DNA from: Enterobacter cloacae subsp. cloacae ATCC 13047
GTDB taxonomy: Bacteria; Pseudomonadota; Gammaproteobacteria; Enterobacterales; Enterobacteriaceae
Length of the DNA: 64,000 nucleotides
Assembly (NCBI RefSeq): GCF_000025565.1
Contig: NC_014121.1
Coordinates: forward strand, 2,480,001-2,544,000
Direction of reading: 5' to 3'
Shown: piece after piece, positions 41,883 to 51,083 of the stretch
How the letters are laid out: each line of letters starts with the position of its first letter
Position numbering within the stretch: the stretch's first letter is position 1
The notes under the pieces: model-generated
Told to the model about the DNA's origin: nothing
What the model saw: the letters and a program-made list of their open reading frames with translations, nothing else
Database searches by the model: none
Program-made: the position numbers and the translations under genes

Positions 41883-41898
41883 TGGCACACAGGTTGCT
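41883..41898 (+). promoter_or_regulatory. Sigma-54 promoter of yeaGH, now cut off from its genes
   Basis: TGGCACACAGGTTGCT matches the sigma-54 consensus at all key positions, with GG and GC correctly spaced. In E. coli yeaGH is part of the nitrogen-limitation (NtrC/sigma-54) and sigma-S regulons. The leader runs from about 41908 to the attL repeat at 41982. The yeaG coding region is 5.9 kb further on, beyond the integrated element. Confidence 0.82.
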
Positions 41899-41981
41899 GC
41901 TCTGGCAGTGAGGTGCGAGAGATTCTCTTCCGGGAGCCTCCACTACTCATACGAACGGCTCTTATCCTGTGCTAAAAAACG

Positions 41982-41989
41982 AAAGGACG
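41982..41989. repeat. Left attachment repeat (attL) of the serine-recombinase element
   Basis: AAAGGACG is identical to 47776-47783. Left of it lies the yeaG sigma-54 leader; right of it AT-rich element DNA begins. It includes an AGGA Shine-Dalgarno core, and an ATG follows at 41993. The exact crossover inside or near the repeat is inferred. Confidence 0.65.
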
Positions 41990-42030
41990 CATATGATCAT
42001 CAATAGGAACATTTACAAATCTCAAAAAAA

Positions 42031-42051
42031 AAGAGGCCAAAAGCCTCTTTT
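42031..42051 (-). terminator. Terminator at the left end of the element
   Basis: AAGAGGC-CAAAA-GCCTCTT is followed on the minus strand by nine T residues. It ends the DUF2188 gene transcript. On the plus strand there is a shorter T-run (TTTT), which would also reduce transcripts coming from the stranded yeaG promoter. Confidence 0.85.
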
Positions 42052-42064
42052 GTCATAATGAGCT

Positions 42065-42286
42065 TTAACCTTTCGGTGGGTATGGGTCCTTCCCATGTGA
42101 GTCGCTATCTCGTATCTGTCCGTTAGGGCGATGTATGACTAATTCGCTCCCCTGATTACGAGAAATAACTCGCCCAGCATCTATAGCTTCTTGCTGAGTA
42201 CGGTGAGTTGAAGTTACTTTTCCGTTGCCTGCACCTCTGACAGCCCATTGTCCGTTGTGAGGCACTACATGTTGGTTTTTACCCAT
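42065..42286 (-). CDS. DUF2188-family small protein
   Basis: The 73-residue protein MGKNQHVVPHNGQWAVRGAG... contains the HVVPHNGxWAVRGxGN and TQQEAIDAGRVISRNQGSELVIH pattern of DUF2188, which ends in a DPYPPKG tail. Function is unknown; members are common on plasmids, phages and islands. A longer reading to 42343 adds an unlikely N-terminus. It faces the IS and is closed by a strong terminator. Confidence 0.82.
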   Translation of the reverse strand: MGKNQHVVPHNGQWAVRGAGNGKVTSTHRTQQEAIDAGRVISRNQGSELVIHRPNGQIRDSDSHGKDPYPPKG

Positions 42287-42376
42287 AATGTCACTCGCTA
42301 CATGAAGTACACCATATGGTGTCAACCATAAGTATAGACACAATATGTAGCGTTATGCTTGCTTAAAATCATATTT

Positions 42377-43662
<1,286 letters not shown>

Positions 43663-43691
43663 GTGTTGTATCTAATCGTGGGGGCAGGTCA

Positions 43692-44362
43692 ACGGTACTG
43701 ATTACTTTACGAGCTTCAGAAGGTTTATTGATTTTGTAAACTTTATTGAATTCAATTCCTGAAAAGTCATTAGGAGTAGCAGTGCCAGACATCATAATAA
43801 CACTTTTGAAAAGTGGGAATGACGCAATAAGACGGTTTATCACATTTGCCTTATAACCATAATCTAGAAAGAATCCGTGAACCTCATCTATCACTAGAGT
43901 TTTATCCGCAAAGTATTCTTTATTGCTGTGCTTTAGGATTGTTTCGATTTGGTTCCAAGTACAAATACCGGTACTGAACACATCATTATCACCCTCAAAG
44001 GATAAACGTATAGATGTTAGCGGTACTAATACTATGTAACCTGGTTTGGCTCTCGCTTTCTGGTTAGTCTCTGGATTAGCTTCTTGTATAAACTGTGTTG
44101 TTTTACCAGTGCCTACCGATGAATTTACAAGGTTTACACCACTTGATAGATCCATCTTATTAAAGACACTGCTTATGTACTGGTTAGGTTCTAGTGTCCA
44201 TTCCCCATGATACTTTGAACCCTGGTTCATTTCTTCTCTAAGTGCGTTTGCTAGTACCCTATCAACTACAGTACCGTTTAGTACGGCTTCACGTAATTTA
44301 TTTGCTTCTTGTCTTAGTGCTTCTCTATCCACCAAACGTGGTAATAATAGTTCTTCTTCCAT
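43692..44362 (-). pseudogene. SF2-type helicase, N-terminal part, cut by the IS
   Basis: About 223 residues remain. Walker A is NSSVGTGKTT (near residue 85), Walker B is LVIDEVHGF, and motif III is MSGTATP. Then the frame runs into the IS end and stops after a few foreign residues. The motif set resembles replication-initiation helicases of phages, satellites and plasmids (SF2). The C-terminal motor domain is lost, so the protein cannot work. The N-terminal 70 residues are polar and unassigned. SD AGGA lies 10 bp upstream. Confidence 0.75.
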
Positions 44363-44449
44363 GAATAATTTTTCCTATTGTCATTTCGCGTTACGTCCTG
44401 TAATCGCGTTTCTACTCATTGTGTGGTTAGTAGACAACCATACTTTAAT

Positions 44450-44602
44450 TTATCCCTGTATCATCATTTGAGTAATCAGATACTGAATACCTGCTGATCG
44501 ATTCTTGGCCTTGCCAGTATCAACTAGCATCTTTTGAATTGCTTCAGCTTGTTCTGCTGTGATACGGATAGATACTGGAATATCTTTATTTTTCTTTTCC
44601 AT
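44450..44602 (-). CDS. Small ribbon-helix-helix-like DNA-binding protein
   Basis: The 50-residue protein MEKKNKDIPVSIRITAEQAE has the pattern of a ribbon-helix-helix (CopG/MetJ-type) domain: a short strand IPVSIRIT, helix AEQAEAIQKMLVDTG, and a turn and helix KNRSAGIQYLITQMM. Such proteins usually autoregulate and control replication or excision genes. I start at ATG 44602 because the basic strand begins there; a reading from 44683 crosses a terminator. It lies just upstream of the helicase gene. Confidence 0.65.
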   Translation of the reverse strand: MEKKNKDIPVSIRITAEQAEAIQKMLVDTGKAKNRSAGIQYLITQMMIQG

Positions 44603-44644
44603 AATGTAAACCTTATGTGTTACATAATTCACTTTTCTATGCGT

Positions 44645-44669
44645 AAAAAAGTAGCCCCTTTCAGGGCTA
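44645..44669 (-). terminator. Terminator or attenuator upstream of the RHH gene
   Basis: On the minus strand TAGCCC-TGAAAG-GGGCTA is followed by CTTTTTT. It would end a transcript that starts near a perfect extended -10 (TGGTATAAT, minus strand, -10 at 44866-44871). The RHH start is only 43 bp beyond, so it may attenuate that operon. Confidence 0.65.
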
Positions 44670-44947
44670 GCTTTAATTAGCAATAGGAGGAATTATAATG
44701 TTTTAAACTATATACTACTATTTAGTCTCTGTAGCTGGAGAGGGGAGAAATGGAATTATACTTCGCGTTTTCGGCTATGTGGATGTTTTCGACCCATACA
44801 GATAGCTATATCTATTATTATAGGACATTTTTCCCGTTTGTCCCAAATATTTTATAGATACCTATATTATACCACCGGAACCACCACTGTTTCATCTTTT
44901 TGTCTTACGTCTTATTTATCAATTTTGTAGTATTAGGTGAGATATGT

Positions 44948-45082
44948 TTATAAATGTAGTTCTTTACAAATTGTATCTTTATGGGAAGTACTAGTACTGT
45001 TAAGATCATAAACATCAGAAACAAGTACTATATAGAATGGGAATAGTAAGAGTTCAATTAAAAATTTCATAGGGTTATACAT
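44948..45082 (-). CDS. Possible 44-residue hydrophobic small protein
   Basis: An open frame in an otherwise gene-free 1.1-kb stretch encodes MYNPMKFLIELLLFPFYIVL and a polar tail. It has one hydrophobic segment (residues 6-22) that could span the membrane. A second in-frame ATG at 45070 gives 40 residues. SD signals are weak. Two AGTACT palindromes lie inside it and encode Ser-Thr-Ser-Thr. No family is recognised. It could be chance. Confidence 0.3.
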   Translation of the reverse strand: MYNPMKFLIELLLFPFYIVLVSDVYDLNSTSTSHKDTICKELHL

Positions 45083-45137
45083 CTCTTGATTGTCTTACAT
45101 TTATTTATCAGAAGAGAGTAATTTGTACTTGATATAG

Positions 45138-45273
45138 AAAAGCCCCTGAAAAGATTCAGGGGCTATGTATGACACTAATCATAAAGTAGGTAATGTACCT
45201 TTAACCGTCGGCAAACGGTAGAGGCGGCAACCTCATTTTAGTACTACCTATCGCCAGTAGGAGACTTGGCTTG
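45138..45273 (-). ncRNA. Candidate structured small RNA of the element
   Basis: A minus-strand promoter (TTGGTG at 45304-45309, 18-bp spacer, TGATATAAT extended -10 at 45280-45288) points into 135 bp that end in a perfect 10-bp stem with an AAGA/TCTT loop and TTTT (45138-45164). Between them lie successive hairpins. Two have the same six-base loop TTGCCG (GAGG-TTGCCG-CCTC and ACCGT-TTGCCG-ACGGT), and a third is AGGTA-CAT-TACCT. No protein frame is visible. The RNA and its function are inferred from sequence only. Confidence 0.45.
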
Positions 45274-45279
45274 GTTGGT

Positions 45280-45309
45280 ATTATATCAAATAGAAGGTTT
45301 TTTCACCAA
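45280..45309 (-). promoter_or_regulatory. Sigma-70 promoter with extended -10 for the candidate RNA
   Basis: On the minus strand TTGGTG - 18 bp - TATAAT, with TG one base before the -10 (TGATATAAT). The -10 is a perfect consensus. Transcription would begin near 45273. Confidence 0.55.
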
Positions 45310-45426
45310 GAAAAATCTCACATCGCCTAATATCAGTCACCCTCACGAATCACTTAACGCAAATCTTTGCTGTGACGCGTTTTGAGAGGCTCTATTACAA
45401 AACCACATCAACGCATTACCATATAC

Positions 45427-45457
45427 AAAAAAGCCTCGCATACGAGCGTACACGAGA
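45427..45457 (-). terminator. Terminator of the recombinase operon
   Basis: On the minus strand GTCTCGTGTACG and CGTATGCGAGGC pair along nearly their full length using G-U wobbles, and TTTTTT follows. It lies downstream of the recombinase and its small companion gene. Between it and 45610 I see only a 23-codon frame without SD; between it and 45310 nothing. Confidence 0.75.
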
Positions 45458-45610
45458 CCAAAATATAAATTAAAACGTAAAATACATATTTTTAAATCAA
45501 TTCCAGACTTACTGGAAAGGCAGATAGTCTACTTTTCGATTTATGATGTTCAGTACTATTCATAGTTATAGATAGTTACTAATCCCGCAAAACACCTTTC
45601 GGGGTATCTA

Positions 45611-45757
45611 TCATCTGAAGATATTCCACACTTCATAAATCGTCGCCATTATGAATACTACACTGAAGAAGTAAGGCCAAAACCTAAGGATTAACCAACC
45701 CATACCGCACACTAGGCCAATACCAAGTATCATATCTATAAGTGGGTTAATCCACAT
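45611..45757 (-). CDS. 48-residue hydrophobic protein downstream of the recombinase
   Basis: The frame encodes MWINPLIDMILGIGLVCGMG, then WLILRFWPYFFSVVFIMATIYEVWNIFR. It consists almost wholly of two hydrophobic segments (about residues 6-24 and 24-42), as in a two-helix membrane miniprotein. GAGG lies 9 bp before the ATG. It begins 20 bp after the recombinase stop and ends before a strong terminator, so the pair looks like an operon. No family is recognised. Small phage-type holins or membrane toxins look similar, but nothing proves such a role. Confidence 0.55.
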   Translation of the reverse strand: MWINPLIDMILGIGLVCGMGWLILRFWPYFFSVVFIMATIYEVWNIFR

Positions 45758-45777
45758 ATCAATAAACCTCTACAGTA

Positions 45778-47712
45778 CTAATCAATCCATTCAATATCTT
45801 TTTCGTGGATTATCATTTCAATCTTCTCTCTACTAAGCAGATCCAGATAGTTACCTACATCAATAATTTTTTTAGTTCTACTAAGTGCAAGTGACCATGC
45901 ATCAGTGCCAATCAATACTGATGCTATGAATACTGTTTTACCTTCTTCATTGACCGTATAAACACGTTCACCATTAGATTCTGAAATGACAATTTCATGT
46001 AGTACTTCACCACCACCCCGCTTATTATCTATCACAAGTACATGGGATAGGATCTCATTGAAATATTCTAACTGAACGAAAATACGTTTTCCGAAAATCC
46101 AGTACTTTACTGATTTAAGTACTAACCTTAATTCCTTTCTTAGCTTTGCACGTAGTTCAACATTCATCGGATCAAGTACTTTATTAATATCAAAGTCAAA
46201 AACAGGGATTTCTTTGATATTTTTAGCGTTTAAAATTTCGGATTCAATTTCTTCAATTCTATCTTGAACCTCGGTCAAACCAGTCATTAATGGTAAAGAG
46301 GTCTTCTTACCTGCTACCTTACGTTCATTAATTTTAATCTGATAGGTTTCCTCTTCCTTCTTCAGAGTAGACAATTCTTCTCGCAACGATGTCAGCAAAA
46401 GGTCAGAATCAGACTGTCCTTCCATCATTAAATTATTGAAATCGATGTTTTTGACAAGTTGAAGAATATTCTTCTCAATTCTTGTGTACTGGAAAGATTT
46501 GGCATCACAAATCTTCTTCTCTTCCCTGTTGCGACAAATGACGTACTTAGTTCTGACATGGTTATAGTGAATGGCGATGTTCCCTCCACAATGACCACAC
46601 TTTAATATTTTGGGGAACAGGTTTGTGATGTAATCATCCTGAGCAATTGTTATATCTTTACGAATACGATTGGCTATACCACTCCTTGATAACTTCTCAT
46701 TAACCCGTTCAAAAGTGAGATTATCGATAATCTTCATAGTAACTACTTTCTTATCGCGTAATACTCGCAGTACGTTTACAGTACTCCACCCTTTAGGCAA
46801 GCGTTTAACAATTGCCCCTGAGCCAAGTCCACTTTCATATAGTTTGAAAATTTCACGAACTACATCAGGTTCAAGTAACAGATCCTCGGCTGGCTTTTTC
46901 TTCTCCAGCATAACGCGATCCATCATCCTGTTCGCCGTTAGGAACAAGTCTTCATCAATGATTTTCGGGTAAACATTTGGTACAACCTCACCATTGTATC
47001 GCTCATGTTCACCCAACAAGCGGCGGTCACGTATCAGCCTTGACACGGTTACCATCTGCCACTTTTTACCGATACGCTTAACAATCTCTCCAGTACTAAG
47101 CCCTTCCCTATACCACTCGAAACACTTAACAATAAGTTCAGCCTGTTCAGGGATCACCTGATACTTGTTATCAACATTTTTTAACCAGTTAGGCATACGA
47201 TTGGAAATCACCTCTCCATTCTGTAATGCACGTAAAATTTTGTTATCCCAAGCTAACTTAGCACGTACCGACTTCATCAATGATTCATTGTGCGAGCGAT
47301 GTTGTATGAGTTCCATGTGGATTTTCGACATAGGATCATCTGCCCGTAACACGAGATTTGTAGAAATGTCGTGGATTTCTACACCGCTGTTCACGATGTA
47401 CTGGATAGTACTTTCAGCCCAACTTGAACGACGCGATAACCTATCAAGGCTAATGACTATAAGTGCGTCACCCTTACCGTACTTGCGGTTCCCCACATCT
47501 TGCAAAAATATCCCAAGTTGAGACTCAGGTGAAATATTGGCATTTTTAAATGCCGAAAGCCCCGCATCTGTTATGAAAACTCTATCATTCGTGAACTTAT
47601 CAGAATTTTTGTCTAAATAGGCAGTTAAAGAAGACCTTTGATCATCCAATCCATTTCCCATTTCGACTTGCTGAATGCTTGATACTCGCTCATAACAAAT
47701 AGGACGGAGCAT
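45778..47712 (-). CDS. Large serine recombinase (integrase of the element)
   Basis: The 644-residue product has an N-terminal resolvase domain with the catalytic Ser11 in YERVSSIQQ and the arginines of ISLDRLSRR (Arg91). Recombinase DNA-binding helices are at about 186-234, a second similar segment at about 281-325, a zinc ribbon (Cys372, Cys375, Cys393, Cys402), and a coiled-coil stretch from about 430 to 500. I start at MLRPICYERV; a reading from 47880 runs into yeaG on the other strand. It reads away from yeaG with 78 bp between the starts. Codon use is AT-rich, unlike the host. Confidence 0.92.
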   Translation of the reverse strand: MLRPICYERVSSIQQVEMGNGLDDQRSSLTAYLDKNSDKFTNDRVFITDAGLSAFKNANISPESQLGIFLQDVGNRKYGKGDALIVISLDRLSRRSSWAESTIQYIVNSGVEIHDISTNLVLRADDPMSKIHMELIQHRSHNESLMKSVRAKLAWDNKILRALQNGEVISNRMPNWLKNVDNKYQVIPEQAELIVKCFEWYREGLSTGEIVKRIGKKWQMVTVSRLIRDRRLLGEHERYNGEVVPNVYPKIIDEDLFLTANRMMDRVMLEKKKPAEDLLLEPDVVREIFKLYESGLGSGAIVKRLPKGWSTVNVLRVLRDKKVVTMKIIDNLTFERVNEKLSRSGIANRIRKDITIAQDDYITNLFPKILKCGHCGGNIAIHYNHVRTKYVICRNREEKKICDAKSFQYTRIEKNILQLVKNIDFNNLMMEGQSDSDLLLTSLREELSTLKKEEETYQIKINERKVAGKKTSLPLMTGLTEVQDRIEEIESEILNAKNIKEIPVFDFDINKVLDPMNVELRAKLRKELRLVLKSVKYWIFGKRIFVQLEYFNEILSHVLVIDNKRGGGEVLHEIVISESNGERVYTVNEEGKTVFIASVLIGTDAWSLALSRTKKIIDVGNYLDLLSREKIEMIIHEKDIEWID

Positions 47713-47775
47713 TTTTTTATCCCGTTGAAGAATTACGCTAAAAGTGCTGATTCGCAAATGTTCCCAGATTATACA

Positions 47776-47783
47776 AAAGGACG
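47776..47783. repeat. Right attachment repeat (attR)
   Basis: The second copy of AAAGGACG lies 8-15 bp before the yeaG ATG and supplies its AGGA ribosome-binding core. Downstream sequence is host yeaG; upstream is the AT-rich element end. Confidence 0.65.
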
Positions 47784-47790
47784 GCATGCC

Positions 47791-49725
47791 ATGAATATAT
47801 TCGATCACTATCGCCAGCGCTATGAAGCTGCCAAGGACGAAGAGTTCACACTGCAGGAGTTTCTTACCATCTGTCGGCAAGATCGCAGTGCCTATGCCAA
47901 CGCGGCAGAACGGCTATTGATGGCTATTGGTGAGCCAAACATGGTTGATACTGCCCAGGAACCACGGCTTTCCCGTCTCTTTTCGAATCGGGTGGTCGCC
48001 CGATACCCGGCGTTTGAAGAGTTCTATGGCATGGAAGATGCCATCGAGCAAATCGTCTCATACCTGAAGCATGCTGCTCAGGGTCTGGAAGAGAAGAAAC
48101 AGATCCTCTATTTACTCGGCCCGGTGGGTGGCGGTAAATCGTCGCTGGCTGAACGGCTGAAATCGCTGATGCAGCGCGTGCCTATCTATGTGCTGAGCGC
48201 CAACGGTGAACGCAGCCCGGTGAACGACCATCCGCTGTGCCTGTTTAACCCGCAGGAAGATGCGCAAATTCTGGATAAAGAGTACGGCATTCCGCGTCGT
48301 TATCTCGGCACCATCATGTCGCCGTGGGCGGCGAAACGCCTGCATGAGTTTGGTGGCGATATCACCAAATTCCGCGTCGTGAAAGTGTGGCCATCCATTC
48401 TGGAGCAGATCGCCATCGCCAAAACGGAACCGGGTGATGAGAACAACCAGGACATCTCGGCGCTGGTCGGGAAAGTCGATATCCGTAAGCTGGAAAACTA
48501 CGCCCAGAATGATCCGGATGCCTACGGTTACTCCGGCGCACTGTGCCGGGCAAACCAGGGCATTATGGAATTCGTCGAGATGTTTAAAGCACCCATTAAA
48601 GTGCTGCATCCACTGCTGACGGCCACCCAGGAGGGGAACTACAACGGGACGGAAGGTATCTCTGCCCTGCCGTTCAACGGCATCATCCTGGCGCACTCGA
48701 ACGAATCAGAGTGGGTCTCCTTCCGTAATAACAAAAACAATGAGGCGTTCCTTGACCGTGTGTACATCGTCAAAGTGCCTTATTGCCTGCGGATCTCCGA
48801 AGAGATCAAAATTTACGAAAAACTGCTTAACCACAGTGAGCTGATGCATGCGCCATGCGCACCGGGCACGCTGGAAACGCTGTCGCGCTTCTCCATCCTG
48901 TCGCGTCTGAAAGAGCCGGAAAACTCCAGCATCTACTCCAAAATGCGCGTGTATGACGGGGAAAGCCTGAAAGATACCGACCCGAAAGCGAAGTCGTATC
49001 AGGAGTACCGCGATTATGCGGGTGTTGACGAGGGCATGAACGGTCTGTCCACGCGTTTCGCGTTTAAGATCCTCTCCCGCGTGTTTAACTTCGACCATGC
49101 GGAAGTGGCGGCCAACCCGGTCCACCTGTTCTATGTGCTGGAGCAGCAGATTGAACGCGAGCAGTTCCCACAGGAGCAGGCGGAACGTTACCTTGAGTTC
49201 CTGAAAGGTTATCTGATCCCGAAATATGCCGAGTTCATTGGCAAAGAGATCCAGACGGCCTACCTGGAATCCTATTCAGAATACGGCCAGAACATCTTTG
49301 ACCGTTACGTCACTTATGCTGACTTCTGGATCCAGGATCAGGAGTACCGCGACCCGGATACCGGACAGCTGTTTGACCGTGAATCCCTGAATGCGGAGCT
49401 GGAAAAAATAGAGAAGCCTGCCGGGATCAGTAACCCGAAAGACTTCCGTAACGAAATTGTGAACTTCGTACTGCGTGCCAGAGCGCATAACAACGGTCGT
49501 AATCCGAACTGGACCAGCTACGAGAAACTGCGCACGGTCATCGAGAAGAAAATGTTCTCTAATACCGAGGAGCTGTTACCCGTCATTTCGTTTAACACCA
49601 AAACCTCAACTGACGAGCAGAAAAAACACGACGATTTTGTCGACCGTATGATGGAAAAAGGCTACACCCGCAAACAGGTTCGTTTGCTGTGCGAATGGTA
49701 TCTGCGCGTACGGAAATCGTCTTAA
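47791..49725 (+). CDS. yeaG: Ser/Thr protein kinase YeaG (PrkA family)
   Basis: The 644-residue product equals E. coli YeaG and is nearly identical at the N-terminus (MNIFDHYRQRYEAAKDEEF). It has a PrkA AAA domain with P-loop GPVGGGKSSLAERL near residue 108 and a C-terminal kinase-like region. E. coli YeaG is induced by nitrogen starvation and stationary phase and affects RpoS. The gene is intact, but the promoter and leader that normally precede it have been moved 5.8 kb away by the integrated element. The SD (AGGA) is 9 bp from the ATG. Confidence 0.95.
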   Translation: MNIFDHYRQRYEAAKDEEFTLQEFLTICRQDRSAYANAAERLLMAIGEPNMVDTAQEPRLSRLFSNRVVARYPAFEEFYGMEDAIEQIVSYLKHAAQGLEEKKQILYLLGPVGGGKSSLAERLKSLMQRVPIYVLSANGERSPVNDHPLCLFNPQEDAQILDKEYGIPRRYLGTIMSPWAAKRLHEFGGDITKFRVVKVWPSILEQIAIAKTEPGDENNQDISALVGKVDIRKLENYAQNDPDAYGYSGALCRANQGIMEFVEMFKAPIKVLHPLLTATQEGNYNGTEGISALPFNGIILAHSNESEWVSFRNNKNNEAFLDRVYIVKVPYCLRISEEIKIYEKLLNHSELMHAPCAPGTLETLSRFSILSRLKEPENSSIYSKMRVYDGESLKDTDPKAKSYQEYRDYAGVDEGMNGLSTRFAFKILSRVFNFDHAEVAANPVHLFYVLEQQIEREQFPQEQAERYLEFLKGYLIPKYAEFIGKEIQTAYLESYSEYGQNIFDRYVTYADFWIQDQEYRDPDTGQLFDRESLNAELEKIEKPAGISNPKDFRNEIVNFVLRARAHNNGRNPNWTSYEKLRTVIEKKMFSNTEELLPVISFNTKTSTDEQKKHDDFVDRMMEKGYTRKQVRLLCEWYLRVRKSS

Positions 49726-49732
49726 AACAAGT

Positions 49733-51083
<1,351 letters not shown>

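What the first reader, a model, noticed from the sequence alone, without database searches (positions are those of the whole stretch)
41883..47795. A serine-recombinase element has integrated in the yeaG ribosome-binding site and separated yeaGH from its sigma-54 promoter
Seen: a near-perfect sigma-54 promoter (41883-41898) and a leader that ends AAAGGACG-CAT-ATG; then 5.8 kb of AT-rich DNA with an intact large serine recombinase at its far edge; then AAAGGACG again, 8 bp before the true yeaG ATG. Known: yeaGH is nitrogen- and stationary-phase-induced in E. coli. Inference: integration duplicates an SD-containing core, so yeaG keeps translation signals but loses its regulated promoter. The element, if it excises, would act as a reversible switch on a stress kinase operon.
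Basis: partly seen in the sequence, partly recalled or inferred. Interest (0 to 1): 0.85.

Follow-up and report, generated by a model that had tools for sequence, protein, structure and literature searches.

The report
Prophage that swaps yeaG's control region
A shrunken bacterial virus sits in the ribosome-binding site of the stress-kinase gene yeaG, cutting it off from its normal controls, and relatives suggest that viruses of this family bring a replacement control region that some bacteria have kept after losing the virus.

Summary
The insertion is at AGGAC in the yeaG Shine-Dalgarno sequence; 27 of 30 same-genus yeaG loci read show the predicted empty site with the sigma-54 promoter in place. 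The element is a 5.8-kb remnant of a ~36-kb serine-integrase prophage family found at this site; about 29-32 kb is missing beside an ISSen4 copy. yeaG is cut off from its RpoN promoter and SdsR sRNA site (and, by published account, an RpoS promoter). A reversible switch is unproven.

New: antisense inside the first recombinase codons, 18 of 18 elements and scars carry TTG..-N17-CATAAC pointing at yeaG, then a leader with GCTAAAA (mostly CGCTAAAAGT), complementary to the SdsR seed. In four other genera prophage and native promoter are gone but this ~125-nt phage-derived stretch remains. In ten species of one genus its -35, -10 and SdsR complement never vary, while yeaG fourfold sites differ 26.5%; five other species of that genus keep the native promoter.

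Best reading: the prophage replaces yeaG's control region, and the replacement has been domesticated more than once. Promoter activity and SdsR control are untested predictions.

The parts
41883..41898 (+). native yeaG sigma-54 promoter TGGCACACAGGTTGCT, now separated from yeaG
   Evidence: the corresponding Salmonella yeaG site TGGCATGAGAGTTGCTTT is listed as a sigma-54 site in PMC3844500 (passages)
41966..41975 (+). native SdsR-pairing site CCTGTGCTAA (-31 to -22 of the yeaG ATG in the empty site), left behind on the far side of the element
   Evidence: position from PMC10954441 section 26; sequence
41982..41989 (+). attL: core AAAGGACG (minimal shared AGGAC 41984-41988)
42006..42014 (+). 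phage attP arm GGAACATTT, inverted partner of AAATGTTCC at 47756-47764
   Evidence: best dyad (14-18 of 24 pairs) centred on C of AGGAC in 5 of 5 elements examined; no shuffle control run
42029..42051 (-). terminator-like hairpin AAAAGAGGCCAAAAGCCTCTTTT just inside the left end; listed as a terminator on the minus strand (end of the DUF2188 gene); on the plus strand only four T follow the G+C stem, so that it stops transcripts from the native yeaG promoters is an inference
   Evidence: hairpin present in 5 of 6 attL-bearing elements (absent in G059) and visible in 14EC007
42065..42286 (-). DUF2188 protein, the left-end gene of the prophage family
   Evidence: PF09954, E 1.4e-25; same place in G061, G106 and E. 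coli C483
42471..43691 (+). ISSen4 (IS3 family), at the edge of the large internal deletion; flanks AGT/ACG are not a target duplication
43692..44362 (-). N-terminal piece of a replication helicase gene, cut by ISSen4
   Evidence: PF00270; 48% identical to the G106 prophage protein, 29-30% to G061
44450..44605 (-). small conserved phage ORF (51 aa from ATG)
   Evidence: matches in E. coli C483, G250 and G106
45778..47712 (-). large serine recombinase (integrase), 644 aa, intact
47668..47673 (+). predicted -35 (TTGCTG here; TTGATC in all scars examined except G289, TTGTAA) of a promoter toward yeaG, antisense within recombinase codons 14-15
   Evidence: TTGATC, 0 of 6 columns vary in 10 g73 species
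47691..47696 (+). predicted -10 CATAAC, 17 bp from the -35, antisense within recombinase codons 6-8
   Evidence: 0 of 6 columns vary
47736..47745 (+). CGCTAAAAGT, exact complement of the SdsR seed ACUUUUAGCG; part of the new yeaG leader
47756..47764 (+). phage attP arm AAATGTTCC in attR
47768..47773 (-). TATAAT on the minus strand, possible -10 of the recombinase gene itself; it abuts the crossover site
   Evidence: seen directly; function inferred, not listed by the scan
47776..47783 (+). attR: core AAAGGACG, the yeaG Shine-Dalgarno in the occupied state
47791..49725 (+). yeaG, intact (644 codons plus stop; 631 of 645 positions, stop included, identical to E. coli C483)
49782..51083 (+). yeaH ORF, 433 aa

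Best explanation
The feature is the decayed remnant of a ~36-kb temperate phage whose large serine integrase recombines at AGGAC inside the yeaG Shine-Dalgarno sequence. SHOWN by sequence: both junctions, the empty site, full-length relatives at the same site, a large deletion beside ISSen4, an intact yeaG, and a conserved phage-derived stretch next to yeaG. FOLLOWS from published work on yeaG: integration removes the RpoN and RpoS promoters and the SdsR target site from the yeaG mRNA together. INFERRED: the phage end next to yeaG supplies a replacement control region, namely a sigma70/sigmaS-type promoter (TTG..-N17-CATAAC) running antisense through the first recombinase codons and a leader that carries a site complementary to SdsR; a hairpin at the other end may stop native transcripts. 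So lysogens keep making YeaG, under phage-supplied control. When the prophage decays this stretch is kept: in other genera only ~125 nt remain, under purifying selection as the yeaG control region. The window is an intermediate stage of that path.
For: Empty site: 27 of 30 loci read. Same-site relatives: prophages with both junctions G061 36.2 kb, G060 35.3 kb, G106 33.8 kb; G250 cut by its contig end; reduced E. coli C483 24.9 kb, 14EC007 15.8 kb, G059 14.8 kb, window 5.8 kb, G007 3.9-kb gap with a recombinase fragment. Scars without a recombinase gene and without the sigma-54 pattern: G255, G135, G289, G138, G258, G105; the same stretch in G307 and in 8 more g73 species. TTG-N17-CATAAC toward yeaG in 18 of 18 elements and scars examined, always 17 bp. 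In scars the match to the recombinase reading frame ends just beyond the -35. In 5 of 6 recombinase genes counted CAG is the commoner Gln codon, yet the Gln codon under the -35 is CAA (giving TTG) in 18 of 18. Selection: three g76 species differ at 1-5 of 153 positions, while 11-32% of yeaG codons with the same amino acid differ (by 100-codon block) and the neighbouring gap differs 14-21%. In ten g73 species 15 of 142 columns vary: 0 of 6 in the -35, 0 of 6 in the -10, 3 of 17 in the spacer, 0 of 10 in CGCTAAAAGT, 0 of 42 from -71 to -30, against 26.5% pairwise at yeaG fourfold sites. Those ten form one clade (100/98) in a yeaG tree beside three native lineages (five species) of the same genus; with 49 of 58 typed family genomes native, native is the likely ancestral state. 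SdsR with ACTTTTAGCG was found in 9 of 9 element-bearing genomes examined.
Against: No expression data. The window's own hexamers are weak (TTGCTG 3 of 6, CATAAC 4 of 6) and the consensus scan did not list them. The 18 elements are related, not independent, and in intact phages the hexamers overlap recombinase codons, so protein constraint explains part of their conservation. Conservation is not confined to the stretch: in the ten g73 species flank segments at -900 to -500 differ only 8-11% (others -500 to -130: 15.5-32%), and one block of yeaG fourfold sites differs only 12.5%; in the first g73 pair the scar (0.896 identity) was hardly above mipA coding DNA (0.871) and most of yeaG (0.876-0.885). 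SdsR duplex energies beat shuffles only moderately: as good or better in 38 of 300 shuffles for the window, 41-46 for G007, G061, G250, G135, G105 and G060, 126-190 for G255, G059, L085 and G106, but 15-19 for G289 and C483 and 4-7 for G138, G258 and G307; for G289 the best duplex did not use CGCTAAAAGT. An exact complement as long as the 10 nt found arises in 4-12 of 1000 shuffled leaders; for the 8 nt of G059 in 135 of 1000. The phage site lies at -55 to -46 from the ATG rather than -31 to -22, so its effect may differ. The plus-strand terminator is weak (one search lists the hairpin on the minus strand only) and G059 lacks it. Invariant leader positions beyond these motifs are unexplained.
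Confidence: 0.7

Rival explanations
1. Reversible switch (active lysogeny): the element excises and re-integrates, turning native control of yeaGH off and on.
For: Intact 644-aa recombinase and both attachment sites are present. A precedent exists: SpyCIM1/mutL (PMC4689407, start of abstract in a listing only; PMC3430984 passages).
Against: Serine integrases need a directionality factor to excise (established knowledge, recalled); I did not search for one, but most of the prophage is deleted. No excised form could be looked for. Several relatives have lost the recombinase or the left attachment site and stay put.
Confidence: 0.12
2. Passive relic: the insertion merely knocks down yeaG; the scars look conserved because the region next to yeaG evolves slowly or was exchanged recently between species.
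For: The first part of yeaG is also rather conserved, flank segments at -900 to -500 in g73 differ only 8-11%, and in the pair G255/G135 the scar is hardly more conserved than mipA.
Against: In ten g73 species yeaG fourfold sites differ 26.5% (17.8% in the first 50 codons) while -35, -10 and SdsR-complement columns differ 0%, and the flanks directly upstream (-300 to -130) differ 15.5-32%. The g76 trio agrees.
Confidence: 0.13
3. The conserved stretch is functional but not as the proposed promoter: it acts as an RNA leader or protein-binding site, with transcription starting elsewhere.
For: -71 to -30 is invariant in ten species, not only the hexamers; the phage arm TGTTCCC also persists in scars.
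Against: Hexamers invariant, spacer variable but fixed at 17 bp; sequence diverges immediately upstream of the -35 in scars.
Confidence: 0.2
4. Host origin: the stretch is an old host yeaG leader that the phage captured.
For: It sits beside yeaG in hosts without the phage.
Against: It contains recombinase codons 3-9 (RPICYER, or RSICYER) in the recombinase frame. Native species of the same genus carry an unrelated leader.
Confidence: 0.03

Closest known systems
SpyCIM5 at mutL in Streptococcus pyogenes Manfredo (PMC3430984, passages read)
   Same: An integrated prophage-like island cuts a host gene from its promoter; a promoter within the inactivated integrase gene restores transcription after decay.
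   Different: There a cryptic promoter in a deleted integrase pseudogene in one strain, mapped by primer extension. Here the predicted promoter is antisense in intact integrase genes across a phage family, kept in several genera, with a predicted sRNA site, and not yet tested.
SpyCIM1 / active lysogeny (PMC4689407 listing only; PMC3430984 passages)
   Same: Integration at the 5' end of a host gene that blocks its transcription.
   Different: Growth-phase-dependent excision is reported there and is unknown here; a Gram-positive chromosomal island, not a remnant of this phage family.
Native yeaGH regulation in E. coli and Salmonella: NtrC/RpoN and RpoS promoters, SdsR repression (PMC10954441 section 26 part 1; PMC3844500 passages)
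   Same: The same gene, and a leader complementary to the same seed of SdsR.
   Different: The phage leader shows no similarity to the native one that I could see beyond GCTAAAA and the SD; no sigma-54 site; SdsR complement further upstream.
Large serine integrases such as phiC31, Bxb1 and A118 (recalled)
   Same: Domain layout, short shared core, dyad-symmetric attP arms.
   Different: The best listed relative of this recombinase among phage records is 31% identical over 40% of its length.

Membership tests
Large serine recombinase / integrase | Resolvase N-terminal, Recombinase and zinc-ribbon domains in one protein | tested here: met
   all three above Pfam cut-off
Large serine recombinase / integrase | recombination of attP and attB in a short identical core | tested here: met
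   attL, attR and empty attB read; common core AGGAC; attP dyad. Catalysis itself not tested
Temperate phage (prophage family) | structural and packaging genes in full-length relatives at the same site | tested here: met
   terminase, portal, head, tape-measure and tail-tip genes in G061; homologues in G106 and partly in G250, C483 and G059
Temperate phage (prophage family) | the window copy itself can form virions | tested here: not met
   no match to the G061 terminase, portal, head, tape-measure or tail-tip proteins in the window
Active lysogeny / regulatory switch | regulated excision that restores the host gene | not testable with these tools
   needs reads or culture
Integrase-borne rescue promoter (SpyCIM5-like) | transcription of the host gene starts inside the integrase gene | tested here: inconclusive
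   predicted promoter and purifying selection; no transcript data
SdsR target | complementarity to the SdsR seed in the mRNA leader | tested here: met
   exact complement of 10 nt in 13 of 16 leaders, 9 nt in G061, 8 nt in G059 and L085, against the window genome's SdsR; duplex energies only moderately better than shuffles
SdsR target | SdsR-dependent change of expression | not testable with these tools
   needs a reporter assay

The most novel reading that the evidence does not exclude
A temperate phage family carries, antisense inside its own integrase gene, a ready-made substitute control region (promoter plus SdsR-target leader) for the host kinase gene that its integration disconnects, mimicking the host's sRNA control. 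Bacteria have repeatedly kept this substitute as the permanent yeaG control region after losing the phage, so that 'attR scars' record promoter replacement by phages.
Probability: 0.45. Interest if true: 0.88.

Novelty: new variant of a known kind. Interest (0 to 1): 0.75.

Why it matters
Phages that integrate at the 5' end of genes are usually thought to break them or to toggle them. Here a phage family seems to compensate for the damage by supplying promoter and sRNA-responsive leader, which would explain why integration at a conserved stress gene is tolerated, and gives a natural series (full prophage, remnant, scar, none) for following how a viral sequence becomes a host promoter. It would also mean that the yeaGH control known from E. 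coli (RpoN/RpoS, SdsR at the RBS) does not hold in lineages with the scar, and that such swaps can be found by looking for attR scars.

Tried and rejected
Whole-recombinase searches of genome contigs found none, and the phage record collection gave only distant hits or none, so the family was traced through IMG/VR, the genome search and E. coli records. A conserved leader RNA fold was looked for: the 16 leaders give no shared structure worth claiming. A repeated phage operator was considered for CGCTAAAAGT and rejected: the 9-mer GCTAAAAGT occurs once in 5 of the 6 elements searched and not at all in G059; CGCTAAAAGT itself is absent in G061 and G059. A consensus promoter scan found 13 sites against 16.3 expected in shuffles and did not list the yeaG-facing site. 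The first SdsR control read minus-strand loci in the wrong orientation and is discarded; one search replaces it. Eleven family genomes with a yeaG hit but no strict sigma-54 pattern were read: 11 of 11 have native-type leaders, some without an intact sigma-54 site or with it outside the pattern's range. Excision was not examined and no directionality factor was searched for.

Papers: PMC10954441 section 26 part 1 and passages; PMC3844500 and PMC3430984 passages; all others search listings only. Searches for yeaG with serine recombinase, for yeaG with prophage and integration site, and for prophage attachment sites with regulatory switches or integrase promoters listed no paper whose title or abstract start reports this site; the full texts of those hits were not read.
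Full report
OBSERVATION. In the same genus 59 of 60 genomes have yeaG at this sensitivity; of the 30 loci delivered and read, 27 show the empty site with the sigma-54 promoter starting 99-100 nt before the core, and 3 are occupied (window, G007, G059). The empty site joins the two flanks as predicted. The window genome is probably an Enterobacter cloacae-complex strain: 1400 bases of its contig C1 match Enterobacter plasmids at 100% (best rows of 236 records, of which 148 are Klebsiella and 54 Enterobacter); this is an inference.

WHAT THE ELEMENT IS. Four IMG/VR contigs carry 90-96% identical recombinases at their edge, three of them with the yeaG-side junction. G061 holds both junctions 36.2 kb apart, with terminase small and large subunits, portal, head, tape-measure, tail-tip and lysozyme genes by PHROGs, a conserved protein of unknown function, and DUF2188 at the far end; G060 has both junctions about 35.3 kb apart. 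G106, in another genus, holds a 33.8-kb relative. The window keeps the two ends (DUF2188 left; small ORF, truncated helicase and recombinase right), and is about 29 kb (against G106) to 32 kb (against G061) shorter when ISSen4 is not counted; the IS flanks are not a target duplication. Twelve further near-identical ISSen4 copies lie in the genome. Phage records hold no close relative: recombinase at best 31% over 40%, replication proteins none, terminase at best 35% among the rows listed. Among 5,426 E. coli genomes 2 carry a relative at that search's sensitivity, both at yeaG. A protein search lists relatives with source names Enterobacter, Klebsiella, Citrobacter, Shigella, Leclercia, Buttiauxella, Kluyvera, Kosakonia, Dryocola and Cedecea (81 proteins at E <= 1e-50; only the 7,998 best candidates were scored). 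From equal contig lengths G250 is probably Dryocola and G059 probably Leclercia sp. S52 (inference).

ATTACHMENT. Comparing junctions across elements narrows the shared core to AGGAC, the Shine-Dalgarno itself. The phage halves form a dyad, AAATGTTCC ... GGAACATTT in the window, with the best centre on the C of AGGAC in 5 of 5 elements examined (14-18 of 24 pairs, no shuffle control). Integration therefore leaves an SD for yeaG but replaces everything upstream of it.

WHAT yeaG LOSES. yeaG is transcribed from RpoN and RpoS promoters and is repressed by SdsR pairing at -31 to -22 (PMC10954441 section 26; sigma-54 site and further promoters in Salmonella, PMC3844500). The SdsR site and the sigma-54 promoter lie left of the crossover; the RpoS promoter position was not looked up but must precede a transcript that holds the SdsR site. 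A hairpin sits about 40 nt inside the left end in 5 of 6 attL-bearing elements; the scan lists it as a terminator on the minus strand only, so that it also stops native transcripts is an inference.

WHAT IT GAINS. Aligning the yeaG-proximal ends showed conserved blocks. 18 of 18 elements and scars examined have TTG[AC]T[ACG] or TTGTAA, 17 bp, CATAAC, reading toward yeaG, antisense in the first recombinase codons. All 16 leaders compared have GCTAAAA; with the window genome's SdsR the exact complement is 10 nt (CGCTAAAAGT) in 13 of 16, 9 in G061, 8 in G059 and L085. SdsR with ACTTTTAGCG was found in 9 of 9 element-bearing genomes examined. In own-genome tests the longest exact complement was 10 nt in 8 of 9 (in G105 a different 10-mer was reported, CGCTAAAAGT being present too) and 8 nt in G059; 10 nt or more arose in 4-12 per 1000 shuffled leaders and 3-15 per 1000 random windows. 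Duplex energies are less decisive (numbers under evidence against).

SCARS. G289, G138, G258 and G105 (mipA-yeaG gaps 0.5-3.4 kb) and G255 and G135 (4.9 kb) have no recombinase beyond short fragments and no sigma-54 pattern, but keep the stretch from the -35 to yeaG. 3 of 3 species of genus g76 have it. In g73, 10 of 15 species have it and 5 of 15 have the native sigma-54 arrangement. In g126, 1 of 8 has it; 2 of 8 were read as native and 5 of 8 did not match my core pattern and were not classified. g43 has a single genome; its leader resembles that of g73, so the two may share an origin. In the sample of 246 family genomes, 58 could be typed: 38 native by pattern, 11 native by reading, 9 occupied or scarred; the rest gave no yeaG hit in those two searches. 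A direct scar-pattern count did not complete.

SELECTION AND DIRECTION. In the ten g73 scar species 15 of 142 columns vary: none in the -35, -10 or CGCTAAAAGT, 3 of 17 in the spacer, none of 42 from -71 to -30. yeaG fourfold sites differ 26.5% pairwise (17.8% in the first 50 codons; blocks 12.5-35%), the flanks between -300 and -130 differ 15.5-32%, but segments at -900 to -500 only 8-11%. The g76 trio agrees: 1-5 of 153 positions in the scar window against 14-21% in the gap. The g73 pair first tested was less clear: scar 0.896, gap 0.668, mipA 0.871. The ten form one clade (100/98) in a yeaG tree beside three native lineages with five species (the tree is of the linked gene and rooted at the midpoint), so gain once and inheritance is the simplest reading. 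Because the stretch includes recombinase codons in frame, its origin is the phage.

MECHANISM. The phage cuts yeaG from its own controls and substitutes a promoter and leader; when the prophage decays the substitute is retained. Steps shown by sequence: insertion, family, decay series, scars, constraint. Steps inferred: promoter activity, SdsR pairing in vivo, termination at the far end, fitness reason. The window copy has the weakest -35 variant (TTGCTG), so its yeaG level cannot be predicted.

COMPARISON. The nearest precedent is SpyCIM5 in S. pyogenes, where a promoter in the decayed integrase gene rescues mutL (PMC3430984 passages). This case differs in strand, in presence in intact phages, in spread, and in the sRNA site. 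I rate it a new variant of a known kind.

Noticed in passing
phage family genomes; 41989-47790 in the window: The palindrome AGTACT is strongly over-represented across this phage family: 109 copies in 36.2 kb of G061 against means of 23.7 in second-order and 49.5 in third-order simulations, and also frequent in G060, G059 and E. coli C483; 14 copies in the window element without the IS. One paper search (listing only) showed no evident account of it. Its role is unknown (methylation, packaging or a binding site?).
   Followed up: partly
L042, L048, L049 (G061): A ~36-kb temperate phage lineage of Enterobacteriaceae with a 1000-aa replication helicase-like protein has no close relative among 50,697 phage records by recombinase, replication protein or terminase.
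   Followed up: partly
47768-47773: The minus strand has TATAAT abutting the crossover site, so the likely recombinase promoter may get its -35 from host DNA in the lysogen and from the other phage end in the circle: integration could reset integrase expression.
   Followed up: no
G000 genome-wide: Twelve further near-identical ISSen4 copies (11 on contig C3, 1 on contig C1) besides the one in the element.
   Followed up: no
L044 and L141 (E. coli AREA_C483 and 14EC007): Both E. coli relatives are also decaying: IS3-family, IS5 and a group II intron in C483, IS3-family elements in 14EC007, where the recombinase is shortened.
   Followed up: partly
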